A DNA stretch of 9,068 bases, from positions 1 to 9,068 of the forward strand of contig JBMFOH010000045.1 of assembly GCA_049969715.1 (NCBI GenBank), written 5' to 3'. Shown here piece after piece: positions 1 to 9,068 of this stretch. The notes beneath the pieces were generated by a model. It was not told the DNA's origin. It saw only the letters and a list, made by a program, of their open reading frames with translations, and did no database searches. The stretch is from JBMFOH01 sp049969715 [NCBI: bacterium] (GTDB taxonomy: Bacteria > DUMJ01). Made by a program: the position numbers and the translations under genes. The number at the start of each line of letters is the position of its first letter. The stretch's first letter is position 1.

Positions 1-1
1 G

Positions 2-67
2 TATAAAATGTTGTATACTAACTTTTACCAGGATTACCCTCCAGAGGGGGGAGTAATTCTAATTTGA
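2..67 (+). CDS. Possible C-terminal tail of a transposase (partial)
   Basis: This frame is open from the window edge to TGA at 65-67 and encodes 21 residues, including YTNFYQDYPPEGG. The stop lies inside the proposed terminal inverted repeat, a layout common in compact insertion sequences. The fragment is too short to assign to a family, and a chance open frame of this length is quite possible. The support is positional: it ends at an element boundary, and an open frame in the same orientation starts just inside the matching end on the right of the window. Confidence 0.3.
   Translation, partial: YKMLYTNFYQDYPPEGGVILI
31..59 (+). other. Hairpin near the 3' end of the insertion sequence
   Basis: Bases 31-42 pair with 48-59 (11 of 12 positions including two G-U pairs, one C-A mismatch at 38/52) around a five-base loop. 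No run of T follows, so it does not look like a standard intrinsic terminator. It contains the GGGGAG sequence that could serve as ribosome-binding site for the TTG at 64. It may limit readthrough or translation out of the element; this is inference. Confidence 0.45.
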
Positions 68-77
68 GTAATTTCTG
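58..77 (-). repeat. Terminal inverted repeat, left copy
   Basis: Read on the minus strand from 77 to 58 it begins CAGAAATTACTCA and matches 8959-8978 at 17 of 20 positions; the mismatches are at repeat positions 14, 15 and 17. Similarity stops at both ends of this block, which fixes the likely outer boundary of the element at base 77. Confidence 0.55.
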
Positions 78-603
78 TGGTCAGGAGGCAATAGAAAAAG
101 CAAAGACTCTTTCTCCAGATGTAATTATTATGGATATAAGGATGCCTATAATGGATGGGATAGAGGCAACAAAGAATATAACATCTATGAATCCTTCTAC
201 CAAGGTGATAGCCTTTTCTGTATATGAAGATGAAAACCTTTTACTTCAGATGATACAAGCGGGTGCGGTTGGATACATATTAAAAGATATTACCTTAGAG
301 AACCTTATTAGAGCTATAAAAAACTGTCACAGTGGTCATGCCATGTTAAATCCTAAGATAGCACGAAAGATATTAGAACTTATGGTAAAAGGAGGTATAG
401 ATCCATCGTTAGAGGCGCTTACCCCTAGGGAGGTAGAGATATTAAGAGAGGTTGCTAATGGAAGGTCTAACAGAGAGATAGCAAAGAAGTTCTTTGTAAG
501 TGAAAGTACGGTCAAGACTCATATTGCAAATATATTCCAGAAGCTAAATATCCATAGCAGGGCGGAAGCAATATCTTACGCTATAAAGAAAGGTATTGTT
601 TGA
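78..603 (+). pseudogene. NarL/LuxR-type response regulator, 5' end lost
   Basis: The remnant encodes most of a receiver domain followed by a LuxR-type helix-turn-helix. Counting from the TTG at base 64, the phosphoacceptor Asp is residue 24 (VIIMDIRMP), the Ser of the signalling patch is at 52 (AFSVYED), the conserved Lys is at 74 (YILKD), and the DNA-binding domain runs from about 116 to 179 (LTPREVEIL, then SESTVKTHI). The family normally has about 50 more N-terminal residues carrying the first beta strand and the Asp-Asp pair that binds Mg2+. None of the three upstream frames encodes them, so phosphorylation should fail. Homology begins at GQEAIEKA, directly after the proposed insertion-sequence end. 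The TTG at 64 could start a residual protein, but it lies inside the element. An intact DNA-binding domain might still act without phosphorylation. It ends 4 bases from the convergent gene at 608. The partner kinase and targets are unknown. Confidence 0.75.
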
Positions 604-607
604 TTTT

Positions 608-1423
608 TTAGTTTAGTGATATAAACCACTTGTCTTTAGTAAAGACAAGATATCTCTCAGAGATAAAGTTCAAAGGTTTTTCGGCGATAGTAAAGTTTTC
701 ACTCAGTATAGAAAGTGGCTTCTCTAGTCCGATGATCTTTGCGTCATAAGAACTAGATGCCATCTTATAGAAGGCCCTTCCGATGTCCTCATACTCCTTT
801 ATGCTCATTCTGTACCTAAATCCTACTCTTGCTCTAGGATTTGTACTTCCAACATCTCTTGGTAGAACATATTCGGGAAAGATTCCAATTGTCCAGAGGC
901 ATATATCTCCTATCCTCTTATATATGGGAAACCTTACCTCTTCATTTACCATATCTGCTAGACGTATCATATCAGCGATGTCTATATCAGAGAACCTTAG
1001 TTTTCTAAGTCCTTTCTTTCCCTTAGCTACATAGTATATAGTCTGACTCTCCGTCCTCGTAAATGAGACAAGCATATTTATAAGATACTCGAAAATATCT
1101 TCATCTTCTATGAGTTCTCTTACCTTTTCTACATCAAATACTGGGATCTTATGATACCTATCTCTTTCCATAGTATAGAGCTCACCTCTTAGGTCCTTTC
1201 TTGCTCTAATCATTAGTATAGTAAAGAAGAGCTTAGGAGAGACCTTTATCATTATATCCTCGTCACCTATTATTCTGTTGAATAGCCTTTCATCTTCTAA
1301 CATCCCTCTTATTATATCTTCATCATTCCTGATAATCTCTAGCCTATCTTTAAGGCTAGGAGCTACCGTTTCTACCACAAACAATAGGTCGCTATCAGAG
1401 AGTTTTAAGTATTCTCTCTCCAT
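608..1423 (-). CDS. Unrecognised conserved-looking protein, last gene of the pilus-motor operon
   Basis: This 271-residue protein is not one I can assign to a named family. It is rich in charged and aliphatic residues, looks soluble and mostly helical, and has no signal peptide, P-loop or cysteine cluster. The motif DEDI occurs three times (about residues 34-37, 54-57 and 107-110), each time in a helix-like stretch, for example RNDEDIIRG. The most hydrophobic stretch is about 170-188 (GDICLWTIGIFPEY), more likely a core helix than a membrane span. The start is well supported: AAAGGAGGT stands four bases before the ATG. The first 19 bases overlap the end of birA, so translation is probably coupled. 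Position as last gene of the gmk-pilB-pilT-pilC-birA operon is the only hint to function. Low-complexity features are absent and codon use resembles the neighbours, so I consider it a real gene. Confidence 0.85.
   Translation of the reverse strand: MEREYLKLSDSDLLFVVETVAPSLKDRLEIIRNDEDIIRGMLEDERLFNRIIGDEDIMIKVSPKLFFTILMIRARKDLRGELYTMERDRYHKIPVFDVEKVRELIEDEDIFEYLINMLVSFTRTESQTIYYVAKGKKGLRKLRFSDIDIADMIRLADMVNEEVRFPIYKRIGDICLWTIGIFPEYVLPRDVGSTNPRARVGFRYRMSIKEYEDIGRAFYKMASSSYDAKIIGLEKPLSILSENFTIAEKPLNFISERYLVFTKDKWFISLN
629..649. other. Perfect 9-bp hairpin between two converging reading frames
   Basis: CTTGTCTTT (629-637) and AAAGACAAG (641-649) are perfect inverted repeats around a three-base loop. 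The hairpin lies inside the last codons of the minus-strand gene, 26 bases past the stop of the plus-strand response-regulator remnant. Neither strand has a T-run directly after it, so it is not a clear intrinsic terminator, but it is the only strong structure where the two transcripts meet and could slow polymerase from either side. Confidence 0.4.
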
Positions 1424-2163
1424 CTATACCTCCTTTCTACCCTATATAATTCCTCTGTAGAGTAAATTCTTCTTTTTCTTCCATCTCTAGTCTCCACTAT
1501 TAGTGCTCCATCTGAGGCTAGGTCAATTACAATCCCTTCTTCTTTAGGGATTTCGTATCCTGCTATCTTTTTCCCTAAGATGTCACAAGACCTTTTCCAT
1601 TCATTTATTAGTCTCTCATCTCCATTTATAAATCCCTCAAGGCCAAGAGAAAACTCTCTCAATATACTCAGTAGGATATCATCCTTTCTGTTCTCTTTTC
1701 CTATTATCTGGTATAGAGATATTGGCATATCTAACCAAGAGGGGAAACTCTTCTGGTTTATATTTATCCCAATTCCTATTATAACAAATTTCCCTCGGTC
1801 CTCTCCAAGGATACCCCCCAATTTTTTCCCGTTAAATATAATATCATTAGGCCATTTTAGCTTAATAGGAATGCCTGTTGCAGAAATAATACCTCTTCTT
1901 ACCATAACCCCAGCCAGGATAGAGAGTAAAGATGATTTATATATAAAACCTCCATCTAGAATGAGAGAGAATGTAAGAGAATTATCGTCTGAAAACCATC
2001 TATTCTCTCCTTTGCCTCTCCCTGCCCATTGTTCTTCTGCCTCAACTATTATATCCCTTTCTCCAAGTCTACCTAACATATAGGCAACGTCCATAGTAGA
2101 TGAAACTCTATATAGCGATATAATCTTCTTAAATGGTGGAATATTTATGGGAACTTCTCTCAT
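1405..2163 (-). CDS. birA: Biotin--[acetyl-CoA-carboxylase] ligase, monofunctional
   Basis: The enzyme activates biotin with ATP to biotinyl-AMP and attaches it to a lysine of a biotin carrier protein, for example in acetyl-CoA carboxylase, in the cytoplasm. The 252 residues cover the catalytic domain and a C-terminal SH3-like domain (about 197-250). Key motifs are the substrate loop EQWAGRGKGENRW (44-56), KWPND (103-107), KLGGIL (114-119) and IIGIGININ (128-136). There is no N-terminal helix-turn-helix, so unlike E. coli BirA it should not repress biotin genes. The usual STN near the start of the domain is STM here (22-24), a small deviation. It begins 8 bases after the pilC stop without a clear ribosome-binding site, which suggests coupling to pilC; the next internal Met would remove the STM motif, so the first ATG is preferred. 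No carboxylase or carrier gene is present here, so its place among pilus genes is unexplained. Confidence 0.9.
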   Translation of the reverse strand: MREVPINIPPFKKIISLYRVSSTMDVAYMLGRLGERDIIVEAEEQWAGRGKGENRWFSDDNSLTFSLILDGGFIYKSSLLSILAGVMVRRGIISATGIPIKLKWPNDIIFNGKKLGGILGEDRGKFVIIGIGININQKSFPSWLDMPISLYQIIGKENRKDDILLSILREFSLGLEGFINGDERLINEWKRSCDILGKKIAGYEIPKEEGIVIDLASDGALIVETRDGRKRRIYSTEELYRVERRYRWRENT

Positions 2164-2171
2164 AAAAGAGG

Positions 2172-3392
2172 CTATAATTTCCCGACCGTCTGAATGATTT
2201 GGAATATGGGCATATACATAGAAATTACTATAAAGCCTATTATGCCCCCTATAAATACTATCAATATTGGCTCTACTAAGGAGGTAATAGTAGCAATCAT
2301 TGTATTTAGCTCTTCATCATAGTAAAGGCCAACCCTTTCTAGCATTTCATCAACTACCCCGCTTTCTTCTCCTACAACAGTCATATATCCAAGCATTGGA
2401 GGAAAGAGGATATTACCTACAAAGGATGCTGATAGCTGTCCTCCTTCTGTAACCTTCTGTTTTGCCCTTTCTACTGCCTCCATATATGGTGTACTGTCCA
2501 TTGTATCCTTAACTACCTCTAGAGCTGTCACTAGTGGGACACCTCCAGAGATGAGCATGCTTAGTGTATGGCAGAGTCTAGATATCACTATAAGTCTGAC
2601 GAATCTTCCAATGATAGGAATCTTTAGAACAAATCTATCCCATATCCCTTTCCCCTTTGGCTTTGATGTGAAGACCCTGAAGAGGAGATATACTACTATC
2701 ACTATAGAGGCAATGACATACCAGTAAGACCTTAAGGAACTACTAACCCCCATCACTATCTTTGTTGGCAGAGGTAATGGAGCATTAAATGATGTAAGCA
2801 GATTAAGAAAGGTTGGTAATACATAGGTAAGAAGGAAGATTACCATTACAATGGCAATTATAATAATTGCCAGAGGATAAGCAGCAGCACTCTTTATCTT
2901 TCTAGCGGTATCCTCATTCTTTTCATAGTAAGAGGCGAGTCTGTCGAATATGATGTCGAGAAAACCTCCTGTCTCTCCTACCCTCACAAGACTTACATAC
3001 AATCTAGGGAATATATCTCTATGTTTATTTAATGCCTGAGATAGAGCAGTTCCTGATTCTACCTCTCTTCTTATATCTCCTATGGCTAGTTTTAACTTTC
3101 TATTTCTGGCCTCTTCTTCAAGGATACTTAAAGCTCTGCTCAAGGCAACCCCTGCTTTAAGCATTGTAGCAAACTGCCTGGTAAATACTACAAGGTCATG
3201 AAGGGAAACACGCTCCATACCTATAAGCATCTTCTGAAGGTCGATGCCAACTGGCTTTGGCTTTATTGAGACGACTATAAATCCTTGGGCTTGTAGTGTC
3301 TTTACTGCAGTAACATCATCTTCCCCGTTTATAATCCCTTCTTTCCACTGACCGGTCTTTTTTTCTCTTGCCCTATATACAAATTCCTGCAT
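2172..3392 (-). CDS. pilC: Type IV pilus inner-membrane platform protein PilC (GspF family)
   Basis: PilC is the polytopic membrane protein on which the PilB and PilT hexamers act to add or remove pilin subunits. The 406 residues are full length. There is a cytoplasmic N-terminal region, then two GspF repeats at about 67-190 and 270-392, each starting with a similar motif (FTRQFATMLKAG at 70-81; LCHTLSMLISGG at 273-284) and carrying VGETGG (138-143) and VGEESG (340-345). Membrane segments are visible at about 172-195, 222-241 and 374-396. The start codon overlaps the pilT stop by one base (TAATG), and GGAGGT lies a short way upstream inside pilT, so the start is secure and coupled. GspF of type II secretion is very similar; the adjacent pilT favours a pilus, as type II secretion systems usually lack a retraction ATPase. 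Confidence 0.94.
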   Translation of the reverse strand: MQEFVYRAREKKTGQWKEGIINGEDDVTAVKTLQAQGFIVVSIKPKPVGIDLQKMLIGMERVSLHDLVVFTRQFATMLKAGVALSRALSILEEEARNRKLKLAIGDIRREVESGTALSQALNKHRDIFPRLYVSLVRVGETGGFLDIIFDRLASYYEKNEDTARKIKSAAAYPLAIIIIAIVMVIFLLTYVLPTFLNLLTSFNAPLPLPTKIVMGVSSSLRSYWYVIASIVIVVYLLFRVFTSKPKGKGIWDRFVLKIPIIGRFVRLIVISRLCHTLSMLISGGVPLVTALEVVKDTMDSTPYMEAVERAKQKVTEGGQLSASFVGNILFPPMLGYMTVVGEESGVVDEMLERVGLYYDEELNTMIATITSLVEPILIVFIGGIIGFIVISMYMPIFQIIQTVGKL

Positions 3393-4483
3393 TATCTAAT
3401 TTTACCTCCTACTGCCTTTAGTGCCTCCTCCCTATTTGTAATATTATTAATAAAATCATCCCAAGAGATCTCTTCTCTTTTATATAGAGAGACAAGAGAT
3501 TGATCCATAGTAGTCATTCCAAATTGACTTCCTGTCTGGATAAAATTAGGGATCATATAGATCTTTCCTTCTCGTATTAGATTCCTTACTGCTGGGGTGG
3601 CAATTAGATACTCGATTGCTACTACCCTCCCGCTCAACATATCATTAGCAATGACCTTTTCTGGTCTTTTTGGAAGTAGCCTCTGTGATATAACTGCCTC
3701 TAGAGTATTACTCAGTTGTAATTTTATCTGTTCCTGCTGATGAGGAGGGAATACATCTATTATTCTTTCTATAGTCTGAGAGGCGTTGTTTGTGTGAAGT
3801 GTAGCAAAGACTAGATGTCCTGTCTCTCCAGCAGTGATAGCAGCCTGAATTGTCTCTAGGTCTCTCATCTCACCTATAAGGATTACATCGGGGTCCTCTC
3901 TCAGTGCTGCCCTTAAGGCGTTTACGAAAGAAAGTGTATCACTCCCTACCTCCCTTTGGTTTACTATACTCTTCTTATGGGAATATATATACTCTATAGG
4001 GTCCTCTATAGTCACTATGTGACAATCTCTAGTCTCATTTATAAGGTCTATTAATGAGGCTAGAGTAGTAGATTTACCACTTCCTGTTGGTCCAGTGACG
4101 AGGACTAACCCCTTATTTTTTTTCGTTAGCTCTTCGAGATATTTTGGTAATCCCAACTCCTCAAGTCTTGGTATATTAAATGAGATCCCTCTTATGGCTA
4201 TACCGATTGAACCTCTCTGATGGTATATGTTTACTCTGAACCTACCAACCCTAGATAGTCCATAGGAGAAATCTATCTCCTTTTCGTTTTCAAACCTTTC
4301 CCTCTGCCTCTGATTCATCAGAGAATAAGCCAGAGTCTTAGTATCTTCAGGGGTAAGATTAGGAAACTCTGTTCTAACTAACCTTCCATATATCCTCAAC
4401 ATAGGAGGAACCCCAACTGTAAGGTGGAGATCAGAGGCGTTTCTTTCCTGTAAAAGTTTCAGAAGATCTTCTATTAACATCAT
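3392..4483 (-). CDS. pilT: Type IV pilus retraction ATPase PilT
   Basis: PilT is a hexameric cytoplasmic ATPase that powers pilus disassembly, and so twitching motility and often DNA uptake. The 363 residues are of usual length. Motifs in order: Walker A GPTGSGKST (131-139), the Asp box around TIEDPIEY (158-165), Walker B DPDVILIGE (197-205) with the catalytic Glu, the His box TGHLVFATLHTNN (221-233) and the C-terminal AVRNLIREGK (298-307), the signature found in PilT but not in PilB. The linker at about 271-285 is somewhat longer than in proteobacterial PilT. It overlaps pilB by four bases (ATGA). Two ATGs stand in tandem at 4483 and 4480; AGAGGA is three bases before the first and six before the second, so the second may be the true start and the protein one residue shorter. 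Confidence 0.95.
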   Translation of the reverse strand: MMLIEDLLKLLQERNASDLHLTVGVPPMLRIYGRLVRTEFPNLTPEDTKTLAYSLMNQRQRERFENEKEIDFSYGLSRVGRFRVNIYHQRGSIGIAIRGISFNIPRLEELGLPKYLEELTKKNKGLVLVTGPTGSGKSTTLASLIDLINETRDCHIVTIEDPIEYIYSHKKSIVNQREVGSDTLSFVNALRAALREDPDVILIGEMRDLETIQAAITAGETGHLVFATLHTNNASQTIERIIDVFPPHQQEQIKLQLSNTLEAVISQRLLPKRPEKVIANDMLSGRVVAIEYLIATPAVRNLIREGKIYMIPNFIQTGSQFGMTTMDQSLVSLYKREEISWDDFINNITNREEALKAVGGKIR

Positions 4484-6147
4484 TGTTCCTCTACATATAC
4501 TGTTCTTAAGATCTCTTTATAGGTGGTAATTCCTTCTTTTACCTTCATTCTGGCATCATCCCACAGTGTGACCATCCCCTTACTGACAGCTACCTTCTTT
4601 ATCTCATTGGCTGGTTTTTTGTCTACAATCATTCCCCTTATCTGGTCATCCACTACAAGTAACTCAAATATTCCAATCCTTCCCCTGTATCCGGTATGCC
4701 TACATGCCTCACACCCCTTTCCTTCATAGAGGGTATCAGATTCTGTCAACCTTAATACCTTTTCCTCCTCTTCTGTAGGTTCTTTTACTGTCTTACACCT
4801 CTGACATATCCTTCTAGACAATCTCTGGGCAAGGACTGCTATAAGCGAGGAAGATATTAGATACGGTTCTATCCCCATATCTAGAAGTCTAGCTATGGCT
4901 CCTGCTGAATCATTGGTATGGACTGTACTTAATACAAGATGCCCTGTTAATGCTGCTTGGACTGCTATTTCTGCTGTCTCCCTATCTCTTATCTCTCCAA
5001 CCATAATTATATCTGGGTCCTGTCTTAAGATGCTTCTAAGTCCATTGGCAAACGTGAGACCTACCTTTGGATTTATCTGGATCTGATTTATCCCTGAAAG
5101 TTGATATTCTACTGGGTCTTCTATGGTGATAATATTCTTCTCTGGGGTGCTGATCCTACTAAGGGCAGAGTATAGGGTAGTTGTCTTTCCACTACCTGTT
5201 GGTCCAGTAACTAGTATCATTCCATAGGGACGTTGTATCAACTGATCAAATAGCTTAAGCATATTCTCGGAGAAGCCTAACCTTTCAAGCCCTATAAGTG
5301 GGGAGCTCCTATCTAGGAGTCTCATAACTACCTTTTCTCCATACATAATGGGCAGGGTAGAGACTCTAAAATCTACTATTCTTCCTCCTGTTGTAACCCT
5401 AAACCTTCCATCTTGGGGAAGACGTCTCTCGGCAATATCCATATTTGAGAGGATCTTTATCCTGGCAACTAGGGTAGGGAATATTCTCTTGGGGGGAGAC
5501 ATCACATCGTGAAGTACCCCATCTACCCTAAATCTTACCTTAACCTCATTCTCCCTAGGTTCAATATGAATATCACTAGCCCCTTCCTGTACTGCTTGAC
5601 TTATGGTAAGGTTTACTAGCCTTACTACTGGAGCCTCATCCTCCAAGATCTCTACTGTAACCTCTGTTTCCTCCTCTGGAGCACCAATATCTAGAAGTGT
5701 CTGTTCTATTCCCGTCTGGATAGTATAGATTCTATCTAATGCCTTTTCTATCTGCTTTTCCGACACAAGGACAGGATCAACCTCTCTACCTGTAATTATC
5801 CTTACGTCATCTAAAGCATAGATGTTCACTGGATTTGCCATTCCTATTATGATCTTATCCCCGTCGATCCTTATTGGAATAAGCTTATACCTTCTACTTA
5901 TATGTTCAGGGATGAGCTTTACTAATTCAGGGTCTATACTTACAGTATCTAGGTCTACGTATGGAACGTTATATATCTCTGCTAATGCAGAGTAGAGATC
6001 TTCTTCGTTTATTGCTCCCATTTTATATAGTATATCACCTAGTTTTTCACCTGTTTTCTGTTGAATAGCTAAAGCTCTATTTATGGTGTCTTCATCTACA
6101 AGATGTCTTTCTATTAATATGTCTCCAATCCTTTTTTTCTGATTCAT
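4480..6147 (-). CDS. pilB: Type IV pilus extension ATPase PilB (GspE family)
   Basis: PilB is the hexameric ATPase that drives pilin polymerisation through PilC. The 555 residues hold an N-terminal MshEN/GspE_N domain (about 5-145), then the motor: Walker A GPTGSGKTT (315-323), Asp box TIEDPVEY (341-348), Walker B DPDIIMVGE (377-385), His box TGHLVLSTVHTND (401-413) and a zinc-binding tetracysteine (C448, C451, C479, C482) typical of PilB/GspE. The MshEN part contains two c-di-GMP-type motifs: RIGDIL...LVDED...Q (6-29, with His15 in place of the usual Gly) and KLGDILYKMGAINEEDLYSAL (35-55), so control by c-di-GMP is plausible but unproven. The ATG overlaps the gmk TGA by four bases (ATGA), with AAGGGAG three bases upstream. 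Alone it could be GspE of type II secretion; the neighbouring PilT argues for a pilus. Confidence 0.94.
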   Translation of the reverse strand: MNQKKRIGDILIERHLVDEDTINRALAIQQKTGEKLGDILYKMGAINEEDLYSALAEIYNVPYVDLDTVSIDPELVKLIPEHISRRYKLIPIRIDGDKIIIGMANPVNIYALDDVRIITGREVDPVLVSEKQIEKALDRIYTIQTGIEQTLLDIGAPEEETEVTVEILEDEAPVVRLVNLTISQAVQEGASDIHIEPRENEVKVRFRVDGVLHDVMSPPKRIFPTLVARIKILSNMDIAERRLPQDGRFRVTTGGRIVDFRVSTLPIMYGEKVVMRLLDRSSPLIGLERLGFSENMLKLFDQLIQRPYGMILVTGPTGSGKTTTLYSALSRISTPEKNIITIEDPVEYQLSGINQIQINPKVGLTFANGLRSILRQDPDIIMVGEIRDRETAEIAVQAALTGHLVLSTVHTNDSAGAIARLLDMGIEPYLISSSLIAVLAQRLSRRICQRCKTVKEPTEEEEKVLRLTESDTLYEGKGCEACRHTGYRGRIGIFELLVVDDQIRGMIVDKKPANEIKKVAVSKGMVTLWDDARMKVKEGITTYKEILRTVYVEEQ

Positions 6148-6743
6148 ACACTCCCTTCTTTTAATCTAGAACTTTTACATCTCTCTGCCATCACAATGGA
6201 AGCGATAAGTTTCCCACTTACCGCTATAGAATCATTCACTATAGTATAATTATACCACTTCCACTGTTTACATTCATCCTTGGCATTGTTATATCTCTCC
6301 TCGATACTCTTATGATCCTCTGTCCCTCTCTTATTCAGACGCTCTATCAATGCATCAAAGGATGGAGGTAATATGAATACAAAAACCCCTTCGGGGAAAA
6401 TCTCTTTTACCCTCCTTGCTCCCTGGGTATCTATCTCAAGGAGTACATCCTCCCCCAGTTTCAACTTCTGTTCCACATACCTTCTAGGGGTTCCGTAGAG
6501 ATTACTATGAACCCTAGCCCATTCTAAGAATTCTCCCTTTTCTCTCATAGAGATGAATTCGTCCTCTGTTACAAAAAAATATTCCTTTCCATTCGTTTCG
6601 TTCTCCCTGGGAGGCCTTGTTGTATACGATATAGAAAGATAAACGTCTGGGACTAATTTTAATGCCTCTTTAATTACTGTACCCTTTCCCACCCCTGAAG
6701 GACCTGAAACCACAAATAAAATTCCCTCTTTCTTGATAACCAT
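6144..6743 (-). CDS. gmk: Guanylate kinase
   Basis: The enzyme phosphorylates GMP to GDP with ATP, an essential step in guanine nucleotide supply, in the cytoplasm. From the ATG at 6743 it has 199 residues, the usual length. Motifs: P-loop SGPSGVGKGT (13-22), GMP-binding SYTTRPPRENE (39-49), EFLEWA (71-76), YGTPRR (83-88), DVLLEIDTQGAR (99-110) and the lid region RGTEDHKSIEERY (139-151). I chose ATG 6743 because MVIKKEGILFVVSG fits the family N-terminus. There is no good ribosome-binding site before it; a TTG at 6767 in the same frame would add eight residues and also lacks one. It is the first gene of the operon and overlaps pilB by four bases, so pilus-motor expression is tied to a housekeeping gene. 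Confidence 0.93.
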   Translation of the reverse strand: MVIKKEGILFVVSGPSGVGKGTVIKEALKLVPDVYLSISYTTRPPRENETNGKEYFFVTEDEFISMREKGEFLEWARVHSNLYGTPRRYVEQKLKLGEDVLLEIDTQGARRVKEIFPEGVFVFILPPSFDALIERLNKRGTEDHKSIEERYNNAKDECKQWKWYNYTIVNDSIAVSGKLIASIVMAERCKSSRLKEGSV

Positions 6744-6781
6744 AATAATTGATTCAACTAACCCCAAACCATCTAATTTTG

Positions 6782-6794
6782 TGATATTATATCA
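6782..6794. promoter_or_regulatory. Bidirectional extended -10 palindrome between gmk and rqcH
   Basis: TGATATTATATCA is a perfect palindrome around a central T. Read on the plus strand it gives TGA-TATTAT, and on the minus strand TGA-TATAAT, in both cases an extended -10 (TGn plus hexamer). No good -35 is seen 16-18 bases upstream on either strand, which extended -10 promoters tolerate. Predicted leaders are about 30 bases for rqcH and about 36 for gmk from its ATG. It could equally be bound by a repressor that controls both directions. Confidence 0.45.
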
Positions 6795-6825
6795 AAAAAT
6801 AAAGAAGAAGGGAAGAATTATTTGG

Positions 6826-8457
6826 ATGGATATATTTGTATTAAAAAGGATATGTGAAGAATTGAAAGAGATAATATTAGGAAGGACCATTAGAAGTTTA
6901 TTGGCTCTCCCTGATAATACTATAGCTTTGGAACTTAATATGAAGAGGGATTCGTTCTATCTAGTTATCTCGGGTTCTAGTCAGTTCCCTAGGATACATA
7001 TTGATAGTGAGGTTTTGATTCCTCCTATTAAGAGTTCTTTTTCTAATACCTGTCAGATACACCTAGAGGGATCTAAGATATCATCTATCTCCTCAATAGA
7101 AGGTGAAAGGATTTTAGAGATTGTATTTGAGAAACCTACTCTCTGGGGGGAGATAGAAAGAAGAAGCCTTATGGTAGAGATTATGGGGAAACACAGCAAT
7201 ATAATCTTATGTAAGGACCAAGTAATTATAGATGCTATAAAGAGGATAGATGCCTCTAAGAGCAGGGCAAGACAGGTATTGCCAGGACTCTTGTATCAAT
7301 ATCCACCAAAGAAAAGTAGTTTGCTAATCTCTGAACTTCACAATTATATATCTTCCTCTGAAATTACGCTAGAGGAGTTTTTGATAAAAAATATAACTGG
7401 AATTGGCCAGCTCTCTATTATGGAGATCTTGTCTCTAGCAGATCTATCTAGAGACAAGATTATTTCGTCGTTGAGTGAAAAGGAAGTAGAGGATTTCAAA
7501 AAGGCTTTAAAGATATTTCAGGAAAGGCTAAAGGATGTAAATCCTGTGGTTTATGTAGATGAGAATGGTAATCCTGAATCTTACTATCTATTCCCTCTTA
7601 CATTTAAGGGAAATAATTATGAGAGGTATAACCTATTGGTAACTGCGGCTACAAGATATTATGATTGGATTGTTCCATCTAGCCTATTGGAGAATAGGAA
7701 GAAGAGTCTTATCAAGGAGTTAGAACATCAGATGGATGTTCTATTAAAAAGGAAAGAAGAGTTAAAAGGGACCATATTACGTCTAGAAGATTATGACAGA
7801 TGGAAGCTCTATGGAGATGTAATTCTTGCCTATAAGGATCGAATAGAAGAAAAGGCGGATAGATTTATGGTAGATTGGGAGGGAAAAGAACTAGAGGTTC
7901 CTCTAGACCCAACCAAGACTGTGATAGAAAATGCCCAAGAGTACTACAAAAGATATAAGAAGGCAAAGAAGGAGAAAGAAGTTCTTCCTGACATTATAGG
8001 TAAAATAGATAAAGAGATAGAATCTTTAAGAAAAAAGATTCTAAGAATAGACTCTATTAAAAGTCTCGAAGAACTAAAGGAGGAAAAGAAAACTCAAGAA
8101 AAGGCTGAAACATCACTGCCGTATATAGAGTATGACTTTAAAGGGTATAAGATATGGGTGGGTAGGAATGCTAGATCTAATGAGCTTATCACATTTAAGT
8201 TGTCTTCTCCTTCTGATATATGGTTGCATGCCAAGGGTTATGGCGGATCTCATGTAATAATTAGGACAAATGGAAAAAATTTAGACAATATACCACGAGA
8301 AGTCCTCCTAGAGGCGGCAAAGCTTGCAGCACTTCATAGTAAGGGTAGATCTGGAGGGAAAGTGTTAGTAGATTATACACTTAGAAAATACGTAAAAAGT
8401 GGAGGAAAAAGGACAGGGAATGTATTCTATACTAATTATAAGACGATAGTAGTATAG
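6826..8457 (+). CDS. rqcH: RqcH/NFACT-family ribosome quality control protein
   Basis: RqcH binds the peptidyl-tRNA-blocked 50S subunit after ribosome splitting and recruits tRNA-Ala to add C-terminal alanine tails that mark stalled peptides for degradation; older names are FbpA or fibronectin-binding protein. From the ATG at 6826 it has 543 residues. The NFACT-N domain is about 1-175 with EIMGKHSNI (118-126), a central helix-hairpin-helix-like region follows at about 180-240, coiled coils at about 288-330 and 370-430, and NFACT-R at about 432-543 (DIWLHAKGYGGSHVII at 464-479, ending GNVFYTNYKTIVV). The conserved Asp-Arg needed for tailing in B. subtilis appears as Glu-Arg (E94-R95, GERILEI). 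The frame is open up to 6733, but MDIF fits the family N-terminus and lies downstream of the likely promoter; AAGGG is 13 bases upstream. rqcH near gmk is also seen in Firmicutes such as Bacillus. It ends 22 bases from the convergent superoxide reductase gene. Confidence 0.92.
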   Translation: MDIFVLKRICEELKEIILGRTIRSLLALPDNTIALELNMKRDSFYLVISGSSQFPRIHIDSEVLIPPIKSSFSNTCQIHLEGSKISSISSIEGERILEIVFEKPTLWGEIERRSLMVEIMGKHSNIILCKDQVIIDAIKRIDASKSRARQVLPGLLYQYPPKKSSLLISELHNYISSSEITLEEFLIKNITGIGQLSIMEILSLADLSRDKIISSLSEKEVEDFKKALKIFQERLKDVNPVVYVDENGNPESYYLFPLTFKGNNYERYNLLVTAATRYYDWIVPSSLLENRKKSLIKELEHQMDVLLKRKEELKGTILRLEDYDRWKLYGDVILAYKDRIEEKADRFMVDWEGKELEVPLDPTKTVIENAQEYYKRYKKAKKEKEVLPDIIGKIDKEIESLRKKILRIDSIKSLEELKEEKKTQEKAETSLPYIEYDFKGYKIWVGRNARSNELITFKLSSPSDIWLHAKGYGGSHVIIRTNGKNLDNIPREVLLEAAKLAALHSKGRSGGKVLVDYTLRKYVKSGGKRTGNVFYTNYKTIVV

Positions 8458-8479
8458 AAATGTCCCTACCCTTTGGCAT

Positions 8480-8872
8480 CTATTCTAACGTTATTTTTGC
8501 ACTATTTTCCCATAATCCATGGATATTGCAGTATGATAGGGCTAATATAGTTCCGTTCTTAGCTAATTTTAGACTTAGAGAAACAATCGGTTCTGTGTAG
8601 AGAGGTCCGGTATTAGGTCCTCCTATAGCTTCTCCGTGAGCTGTAAATTCAAAGCTTCCAACCTCATAGGAGTACTGCTCATCATCGGGCTTAAAGAAGA
8701 CCTTTATCCAACTGATGTGATGTTCTGTAGTATTTGGGTGTGGGACCTCCTTACCTACGCTTACCTTAATATTGAAGACCTCGCTGGCTTTTATCTTCTC
8801 TGGAATTTCTACCACAGGAACATGCTTTTCCTTTTTGAAATCTTCAGTCTTTATGGTTTCTCCAAGTTTCAT
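8480..8872 (-). CDS. sorA: Superoxide reductase, one-iron neelaredoxin type
   Basis: The enzyme reduces superoxide to hydrogen peroxide without releasing oxygen, taking electrons from rubredoxin or a similar donor, in the cytoplasm of anaerobes. From ATG 8872 it has 130 residues, all in the SOR domain. The Fe(His)4Cys site is complete: H17 in EKHVP (with E15 and the catalytic-loop K16), H45 in VPHPN, H51 in TEHHIS, C115 and H118 in CNIHG. There is no N-terminal CxxC desulforedoxin domain, so this is the class II (Pyrococcus-like) form. The start is ATG 8872 because AAAAAGGAG (8881-8889) stands eight bases before it; the GTG at 8881 overlaps that site and is unlikely. It is a single-gene transcript with its own promoter; no rubredoxin or rubrerythrin is adjacent, so the electron donor must be encoded elsewhere. 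Confidence 0.94.
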   Translation of the reverse strand: MKLGETIKTEDFKKEKHVPVVEIPEKIKASEVFNIKVSVGKEVPHPNTTEHHISWIKVFFKPDDEQYSYEVGSFEFTAHGEAIGGPNTGPLYTEPIVSLSLKLAKNGTILALSYCNIHGLWENSAKITLE

Positions 8873-8901
8873 TTCTATCACTCCTTTTTAAAAAATTTAT
8901 T

Positions 8902-8916
8902 AATTAATAATTATAA
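8902..8916 (-). promoter_or_regulatory. PerR-box-like sequence over the superoxide reductase -10
   Basis: On the minus strand this reads TTATAATTATTAATT and matches the PerR consensus TTATAATnATTATAA at 11 of the 14 defined positions. It overlaps the -10 hexamer, where a repressor would block transcription. Superoxide reductase genes are PerR targets in several anaerobes. The region is very A+T rich, so chance similarity is a real alternative. A perfect 14-bp palindrome, TTATTAATTAATAA (8897-8910), overlaps it and is a second operator candidate. Confidence 0.35.
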
Positions 8917-8941
8917 TAGCATAATTTAGAAGATAAGTAAA
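8913..8941 (-). promoter_or_regulatory. Promoter of the superoxide reductase gene
   Basis: On the minus strand -35 TTTACT (8936-8941) and -10 TATTAT (8913-8918) are separated by 17 bases, and TGC precedes the -10 (extended -10). Transcription should start near 8906, giving a leader of about 33 bases before the ATG at 8872. Upstream of the -10, AAGATAA and TTATCTT form a seven-base inverted repeat around the -35 (about 8932-8953). The insertion-sequence end at 8959 lies 17 bases beyond the -35. Confidence 0.6.
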
Positions 8942-8958
8942 GATTTATCTTTTCTGAT

Positions 8959-8978
8959 CAGAAATTACTCATTTCAGA
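8959..8978 (+). repeat. Terminal inverted repeat, right copy
   Basis: It begins CAGAAATTACTCA and matches the reverse complement of 58-77 at 17 of 20 positions. Together they have the size and imperfect 3' part typical of the ends of a DDE-type insertion sequence. Its outer base is C8959; the preceding TTTCTGAT makes a perfect 14-bp palindrome with the first six bases (8951-8964). Confidence 0.55.
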
Positions 8979-8995
8979 TCGTAAGGGATTAAAAA

Positions 8996-9068
8996 ATGAA
9001 AAATTTAGCTTCTAACAGTAACACCATACTCCTTCTAATCCCTCTCAATTGTCTTTTTAAAAAGGGAT
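8996..9068 (+). CDS. Possible N-terminus of a transposase (partial)
   Basis: ATG 8996 is preceded at eight bases by AAGGG (8983-8987) and opens a frame of 24 codons to the window edge, beginning MKNLASNSNT and continuing with a hydrophobic stretch (ILLLIPLN). It starts 37 bases inside the proposed element end, a normal distance for a transposase. I do not recognise the sequence. A competing open frame exists on the minus strand of this segment but stops before the terminal repeat. Confidence 0.4.
   Translation, partial: MKNLASNSNTILLLIPLNCLFKKG

What the first reader, a model, noticed from the sequence alone, without database searches (positions are those of the whole stretch)
1..9068. Window bounded by the two ends of one unidentified insertion sequence in the same orientation
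A 20-bp imperfect inverted repeat (13 identical leading bases, CAGAAATTACTCA) lies at 58-77 and 8959-8978, each followed on its outer side by element-like sequence: a frame with its stop inside the repeat at the left, and a ribosome-binding site plus start at the right. Two direct copies would flank a 8.9-kb segment with gmk, pilus motors, birA, rqcH and sor, which could recombine, be duplicated or be lost. Alternatively an assembly simply broke inside a repeat.
Basis: partly seen in the sequence, partly recalled or inferred. Interest (0 to 1): 0.6.

Follow-up and report, generated by a model that had tools for sequence, protein, structure and literature searches.

The report
Contig broken inside two jumping-gene copies
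The two ends of this stretch of DNA are probably the opposite ends of a small jumping gene present in more than one copy, so the assembly likely stopped there; one copy sits inside a signalling gene, which is a real but ordinary situation.

Summary
The inverted repeat is real: 20 bp at 58-77 and 8959-8978, 17 of 20 paired, outer 13 identical. Alone it is weak: the window has six other inverted 13-mers. The window's own genome is not held, so I used its nearest relatives, G001-G003. There the 13-mer occurs 8 times in 3 of 3 genomes, the reversed control 0 times. One G003 insertion shows facing 13-mers and a 9-bp target duplication, GGTTAAGGT, between genes that adjoin in G002. Its two ends differ inside the repeat. 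The window's left end matches one kind well (z 7.1), the right end the other kind modestly (z 2.2). The left copy interrupts a response-regulator gene at codon 45. Four G003 contigs stop 141 bp inside the element; the window stops 77 and 110 bp inside, so an assembly break is likely too. No full copy or transposase was recovered, and excision or duplication of the segment is not shown. A new member of a known kind.

The parts
1..77 (-). Terminal 77 bp of the left element copy ('type 1' end; element extends left, beyond the window)
   Evidence: Beyond the 13-mer similar to the type-1 ends of L047 (z 7.1, 0 of 1000 shuffles), L046 (z 4.4, 0 of 1000) and L055 (z 4.7, 1 of 1000); not to the type-2 end L044 (z -0.7). 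Its own hairpin is not significant (z -0.04)
58..77 (-). Terminal inverted repeat of the left copy; outermost 13 bases CAGAAATTACTCA on the minus strand (77-65)
78..86 (+). Predicted 9-bp target duplication next to the left copy (TGGTCAGGA); prediction only
   Evidence: Letters checked; length inferred from the 9-bp duplication at one G003 insertion
78..603 (+). Remainder of a response-regulator gene with a LuxR-type (GerE) domain, cut within codon 45 (numbering of the L001 ORF); codons 1-44, with the DD acidic pair, lie outside the window
   Evidence: Pfam Response_reg matched only from profile position 31; 217-aa homologue in syntenic L001
608..8881 (.). Native chromosomal genes between the copies: hypothetical gene, birA, T2SSF (pilC-like), two T2SSE (pilT- and pilB-like), gmk, rqcH, desulfoferrodoxin
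   Evidence: Pfam (the hypothetical gene has no hit); RR to rqcH in the same order in L001, no desulfoferrodoxin hit in L001-L003 at E 1e-5
8950..8958 (+). Predicted 9-bp target duplication next to the right copy (TTTTCTGAT); prediction only
   Evidence: Letters checked; length inferred
8959..8978 (+). Terminal inverted repeat of the right copy
8959..9068 (+). Terminal 110 bp of the right element copy ('type 2' end; element extends right, beyond the window)
   Evidence: Modest similarity to the type-2 end L044 (z 2.2, 32 of 1000 shuffles), none to the three type-1 ends (z -1.5, 0.0, 0.7); a stem at 9038-9068 is not significant (z -1.0)

Best explanation
The window is a piece of chromosome from an uncultured bacterium related to G001-G003. 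It is bounded by two separate, same-orientation copies of one insertion sequence (or very close relatives). The element ends in about 13 bp of inverted repeat (CAGAAATTACTCA) and duplicates 9 bp of target. In relatives one end (type 1) carries a strong hairpin, a promoter-like box and, in L046, an inward open frame; the other (type 2) has no long frame in its last 141 bp. The left copy inserted into codon 45 of a response-regulator gene; the right copy inserted 77 bp upstream of the desulfoferrodoxin ORF. The assembler stopped inside both copies because the element is repeated. Shown in G003: repeat, two end types, one target duplication, contig breaks. Inferred for the window: that both ends belong to one element, their orientation, the assembly break, and that a DDE transposase, probably transcribed on the minus strand here, moved it.
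For: 8 exact 13-mers in 3 of 3 relatives, control 0. G003 contigs C13 and C25 end in a type-2 and a type-1 terminus whose host flanks share an abutting 9-bp repeat, the only one of 5 bp or more among 66 pairs of 12 ends. The genes beside those ends adjoin divergently in G002. In G003 the type-1 ends of C25 and C47 are identical over 141 bp and the type-2 ends of C13 and C17 over 141 bp, each running to the end of its contig, as expected where a k=141 assembly meets a repeat. Window left matches type 1, window right type 2. The window's RR gene lacks the first 44 codons of the L001 gene, and the break coincides with the end of the 13-mer. De Bruijn assemblers tend to end contigs at repeats (PMC7605220, passages seen).
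Against: The window's own genome is not held, so copy number there is unknown. The right-end match to type 2 is modest (32 of 1000 shuffles as good). The window's left end lacks most of the box-bearing segment of type 1 in the alignment and its hairpin is not significant. The second G003 pair, C17 and C47, shares no target duplication. The window flanks share none, expected for two separate insertions but no positive support. In G001 the 3.4-kb locus around ppdK has no match to the other flank or its gene, and in G002 the two flank matches are 152 bp apart, so the empty site is not clean. Not all 8 exact matches are clear element ends: L045 shows neither type, L042 and L043 match type 1 only briefly. 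No full-length element or transposase was recovered; the L046 frame has no family match and, by my reading of its codons, no ATG, GTG or TTG before an internal ATG.
Confidence: 0.8

Rival explanations
1. The two ends are from two different insertion sequences that share terminal repeats, so 'same orientation' has no meaning.
For: Type-1 and type-2 sequences differ beyond the 13-mer. A similar block, ACTTCC..ATAGAATTCCT, occurs about 120-150 bp inside both L046 and L044, which could mean that both are 5' ends. The right-end match to L044 is modest.
Against: In G003 one insertion with a 9-bp duplication has a type-1 and a type-2 end facing each other, and two contigs break 141 bp inside each type. 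Two more type-1 stretches in G003 (C42, C50) are partial and lie off the contig breaks.
Confidence: 0.13
2. The contig is a circle, or one unit of a tandem amplification, closed through a single element copy by recombination between direct copies.
For: Two same-orientation copies would permit it; a single-copy circle would give just these two ends.
Against: Nothing in the data asks for it. The genes from RR to rqcH stand in the order of a relative's chromosome contig, and an unresolved repeat explains the ends.
Confidence: 0.04
3. Chance: two unrelated 20-bp matches near the ends of a contig.
For: Six other inverted 13-mers exist in the window.
Against: Both lie in the last 110 bp, one exactly where a conserved gene is cut; the 13-mer is a repeated terminus in relatives.
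Confidence: 0.03

Closest known systems
IS4 family, subgroup IS4Sa (De Palmenaer et al. 2008, PMC2266710; passages with Table 1 seen)
   Same: Ends begin with CA, and target duplications are 8-10 bp (here 9). A separate multi-copy IS in G002 has a terminus that looks similar by eye (CTGATCTGTAATCACTTTTTGATCC against CAGAAATTACTCATTTTGATCC; not tested). Its G001 homologue L108 matches NF033591, IS4 family (E 2.3e-16, 59.9 bits against a cut-off of 152).
   Different: The table's T at position 9 is an A here. The transposase was not recovered, so DDE and YREK motifs are unseen.
Composite transposon (two IS copies around cargo)
   Same: Two same-orientation ends flank a gene block.
   Different: The block RR to rqcH is the native neighbourhood as in L001, not evident cargo; outer target duplications cannot be seen.
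IS-bounded contigs of short-read assemblies
   Same: Both ends stop a short distance inside a repeat (77 and 110 bp here; 141 bp in G003).
   Different: No difference seen.

Membership tests
Insertion sequence (any DDE family) | Facing terminal inverted repeats | tested here: met
   G003 C13/C25 and the window ends
Insertion sequence (any DDE family) | Target-site duplication | tested here: met
   9 bp at one G003 insertion; C17/C47 show none; not visible at the window
Insertion sequence (any DDE family) | More than one copy in a genome | tested here: met
   Identical end pairs in G003; the window's own genome is not held
Insertion sequence (any DDE family) | Encodes a transposase | tested here: inconclusive
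   Only a partial inward frame in L046; no Pfam or NCBIfam hit
IS4 family | About 10-bp target duplication | tested here: met
   9 bp against PMC2266710
IS4 family | DDE and YREK motifs in a single-orf transposase | not testable with these tools
   No full copy recovered
IS4 family, subgroup IS4Sa | Ends CA------T | tested here: not met
   CA present, but position 9 is A (CAGAAATTA); Table 1 seen
Composite transposon | Flanked block moved as a unit | tested here: not met
   RR to rqcH has the same order in L001, where the 13-mer has no match within 1 mismatch and one with 2

The most novel reading that the evidence does not exclude
The element is the founder of an undescribed IS family confined to a barely sampled bacterial lineage, with asymmetric ends: a 5' end with a strong hairpin and promoter that persists as solo remnants of about 50-125 bp, and an unrelated 3' end.
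Probability: 0.2. Interest if true: 0.35.

Novelty: new member of a known kind. Interest (0 to 1): 0.22.

Why it matters
It explains why this contig probably ends where it does, shows a response-regulator gene disrupted in the assembled sequence, and gives a 9-bp signature by which separate contigs of such genomes can be paired across unresolved insertion sequences. Biologically it is ordinary.

Tried and rejected
Viral-contig scans with the repeat gave 4 matches in all: L040, L041 and L089, L090. In L040 and L041 the match lies inside the same 120-aa ORF, among ORFs that I read as phage structural genes without a family search; L089 and L090 show other sequence inside the repeat. I took all four as chance.

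The 60-aa frame of L046 found no match in plasmids, phages or viral contigs (20 stretches matched a pattern, none confirmed). Of 290 genomes (G001 and G003 among them), 3 matched at E 0.01 or better: G001 itself, L061 (G003) and L091 (G211). I judged L061, L091 and L063 unrelated from their ORFs. The weak hits L062 and L064-L066 were not examined further for coding; L067 and L068 are the G003 type-1 ends.

PF01609 gave one hit in each of G001-G003 (L108-L110), with no exact 13-mer nearby, only scattered matches with up to 3 mismatches. L108 led to another, separate IS4-like element in G002.

A peptide reading out of L042 to the stop in its repeat hits the ISL3 model weakly (E 2.7e-4, 20.1 bits against a cut-off of 180); I did not build on it, though it argues against filing the element under IS4.

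A terminator role for the type-2 stem is not supported (z -1.0; z 0.13 for an L044 piece that I cut too short). The box at type 1 is a weak call (4 sites against 1.3 in shuffles). A literature search on assembly and target-duplication terms gave 0 papers.

Full report
Observation. The window holds an imperfect 20-nt inverted repeat at 58-77 and 8959-8978, 85% complementary, with 13 identical outer bases. Six other exact inverted 13-mers exist in the window, and 11-mers between the two shuffled 110-bp ends turn up in 129 of 20000 trials, so the pair alone is a weak sign.

Source. No genome is held for the window. A scan with the RqcH protein gave 39 loci. The three closest (L001-L003, 57-58% identity) are unclassified bacterial MAGs; the other 36, titled as Clostridia, Lachnospiraceae, streptococci and similar, have 32% or less. 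Their genomes, G001-G003, were all that family, order and phylum searches around G001 returned, so the lineage is thinly sampled in this collection.

A repeated terminus in relatives. CAGAAATTACTCA occurs 8 times in 3 of 3 genomes against 0 for the reversed control. One mismatch adds mostly noise (24 against 18), though three TAGAAATTACTCA sites in G003 share inner sequence and look real. Inside the 13-mer two kinds of sequence follow. Type 1 is clear in L046, L047, L048 and L049, with a CCCCTC-rich hairpin (z -3.5 in L047, -4.8 in L046), a TATAAT box (L047) and in L046 an open frame reading inward. Type 2 is L044 and its near-identical partner L072, with no long frame in 141 bp (L044). L042 and L043 match type 1 only briefly and L045 neither.

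Proof of transposition. In G003, contig C13 ends in a type-2 terminus and C25 in a type-1 terminus, and the host bases abutting the two are the same 9-mer, GGTTAAGGT. Among 66 pairs of 12 ends this is the only duplication of 5 bp or more; with equal bases the chance of any 9-bp match is about 66/4^9, or 0.00025 (own arithmetic). The genes next to the two ends, which I read as ppdK and a VOC-family gene without a family search, lie next to each other and diverge in G002. In G001 the fetched locus has only the ppdK side, and in G002 the flank matches are 152 bp apart, so the site is homologous but not a clean empty site. The other two G003 ends, C17 and C47, share no duplication; they may belong to different or rearranged copies. 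Both identical pairs stop 141 bp inside the shared sequence, at contig ends, as expected for contigs ended at a repeat by a k=141 assembler. That setting is my inference; that de Bruijn assemblers end contigs at repeats is stated in PMC7605220 (passages seen).

The window's two ends. Leaving out the 13-mer, the left 77 bp match type 1 (z 7.1 to L047, 4.4 to L046, 4.7 to L055; 0, 0 and 1 of 1000 shuffles as good) and not type 2 (z -0.7). The right 110 bp match type 2 modestly (z 2.2, 32 of 1000) and not type 1 (z -1.5 to 0.7). Since types 1 and 2 face each other across one insertion in G003, the window is read as flanked by two copies in the same orientation. The window's left end lacks most of the box-bearing segment and its hairpin is not significant, so those features are taken from relatives. 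The type-1 features suggest that the transposase gene begins at type 1, which puts it on the minus strand in both copies; this is inference. The left end is exactly 77 bp long, which I recall as a common assembler word length; the 110 bp at the right would then mean that its outer 33 bp differ between copies (inference).

Insertion site. L001 has the order of a sensor-kinase-like gene (my reading), response regulator, hypothetical, birA, pilC, pilT, pilB, gmk, rqcH, with 55-79% protein identity to the window. Its response regulator has 217 aa. In the window the gene resumes in the third base of codon 45, exactly where the 13-mer ends, and Pfam covers the receiver domain only from profile position 31. 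So the left copy interrupts the gene and cuts off its N-terminal acidic pair. The right copy lies 77 bp upstream of the desulfoferrodoxin ORF. Because RR to rqcH stands in a relative's order, the block is native chromosome rather than visible cargo. Recombination, loss or duplication between the copies is possible in principle and not shown.

Family. No full copy was found. The L046 frame has no Pfam or NCBIfam match. A CA start and a 9-bp duplication fit subgroup IS4Sa of the IS4 family (8-10 bp), but position 9 does not (Table 1 of PMC2266710). A separate multi-copy IS4-like element of G002 has a terminus that looks related by eye. A weak ISL3 hit from L042 points elsewhere. I therefore call it an insertion sequence, possibly IS4-like, family unassigned.

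Verdict. The finding is sound in its main point and ordinary in kind. On checking, I lowered the main confidence slightly (0.82 to 0.80) because the window's own left end does not show the hairpin and box of its relatives.

Noticed in passing
L046 1-19, L054 1-18, L056 near 1508-1526 (G001 contigs C100, C116, C61): Contig ends carry CTGTCTCTTATACACATCT or its complement, which I recall as the Nextera (Tn5 mosaic end) adapter: apparently untrimmed adapter in a public MAG.
   Followed up: partly
L114, L115, L117-L123 (G002 contigs C331, C329, C249, C93, C278, C135, C355, C273, C57); relatives in G001 L113, L116: A second multi-copy IS4-like element; 8 of the 9 G002 copies end in ...GTGATTACAGATCAG (C57 differs), and the 9 fetched loci are cut short inside the transposase frame as at contig ends.
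   Followed up: partly
L140 1501-1594 (G002 C279:29222-29315): A 94-bp MITE-like unit with facing ends CTGATCCGTAATCAA / CTGATCTGTAATCAT, like the ends of that second element.
   Followed up: no
L050 1501-1577, L053 148-271, L055 1501-1611, L052 1501-1552: Solo stretches of about 50-125 bp similar to the type-1 end, after which similarity to L046 stops; they keep the hairpin region and a TATAAT-like box or variant.
   Followed up: no
L042 1501-1600 (G002 C40:1583): Reading outward to a stop inside the repeat, a 30-aa peptide with a CPKCG motif hits the ISL3 transposase model weakly (E 2.7e-4, far below its cut-off).
   Followed up: no
window 8951-8964: The right junction forms a perfect palindrome TTTCTGATCAGAAA across host and element; meaning unknown.
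   Followed up: no
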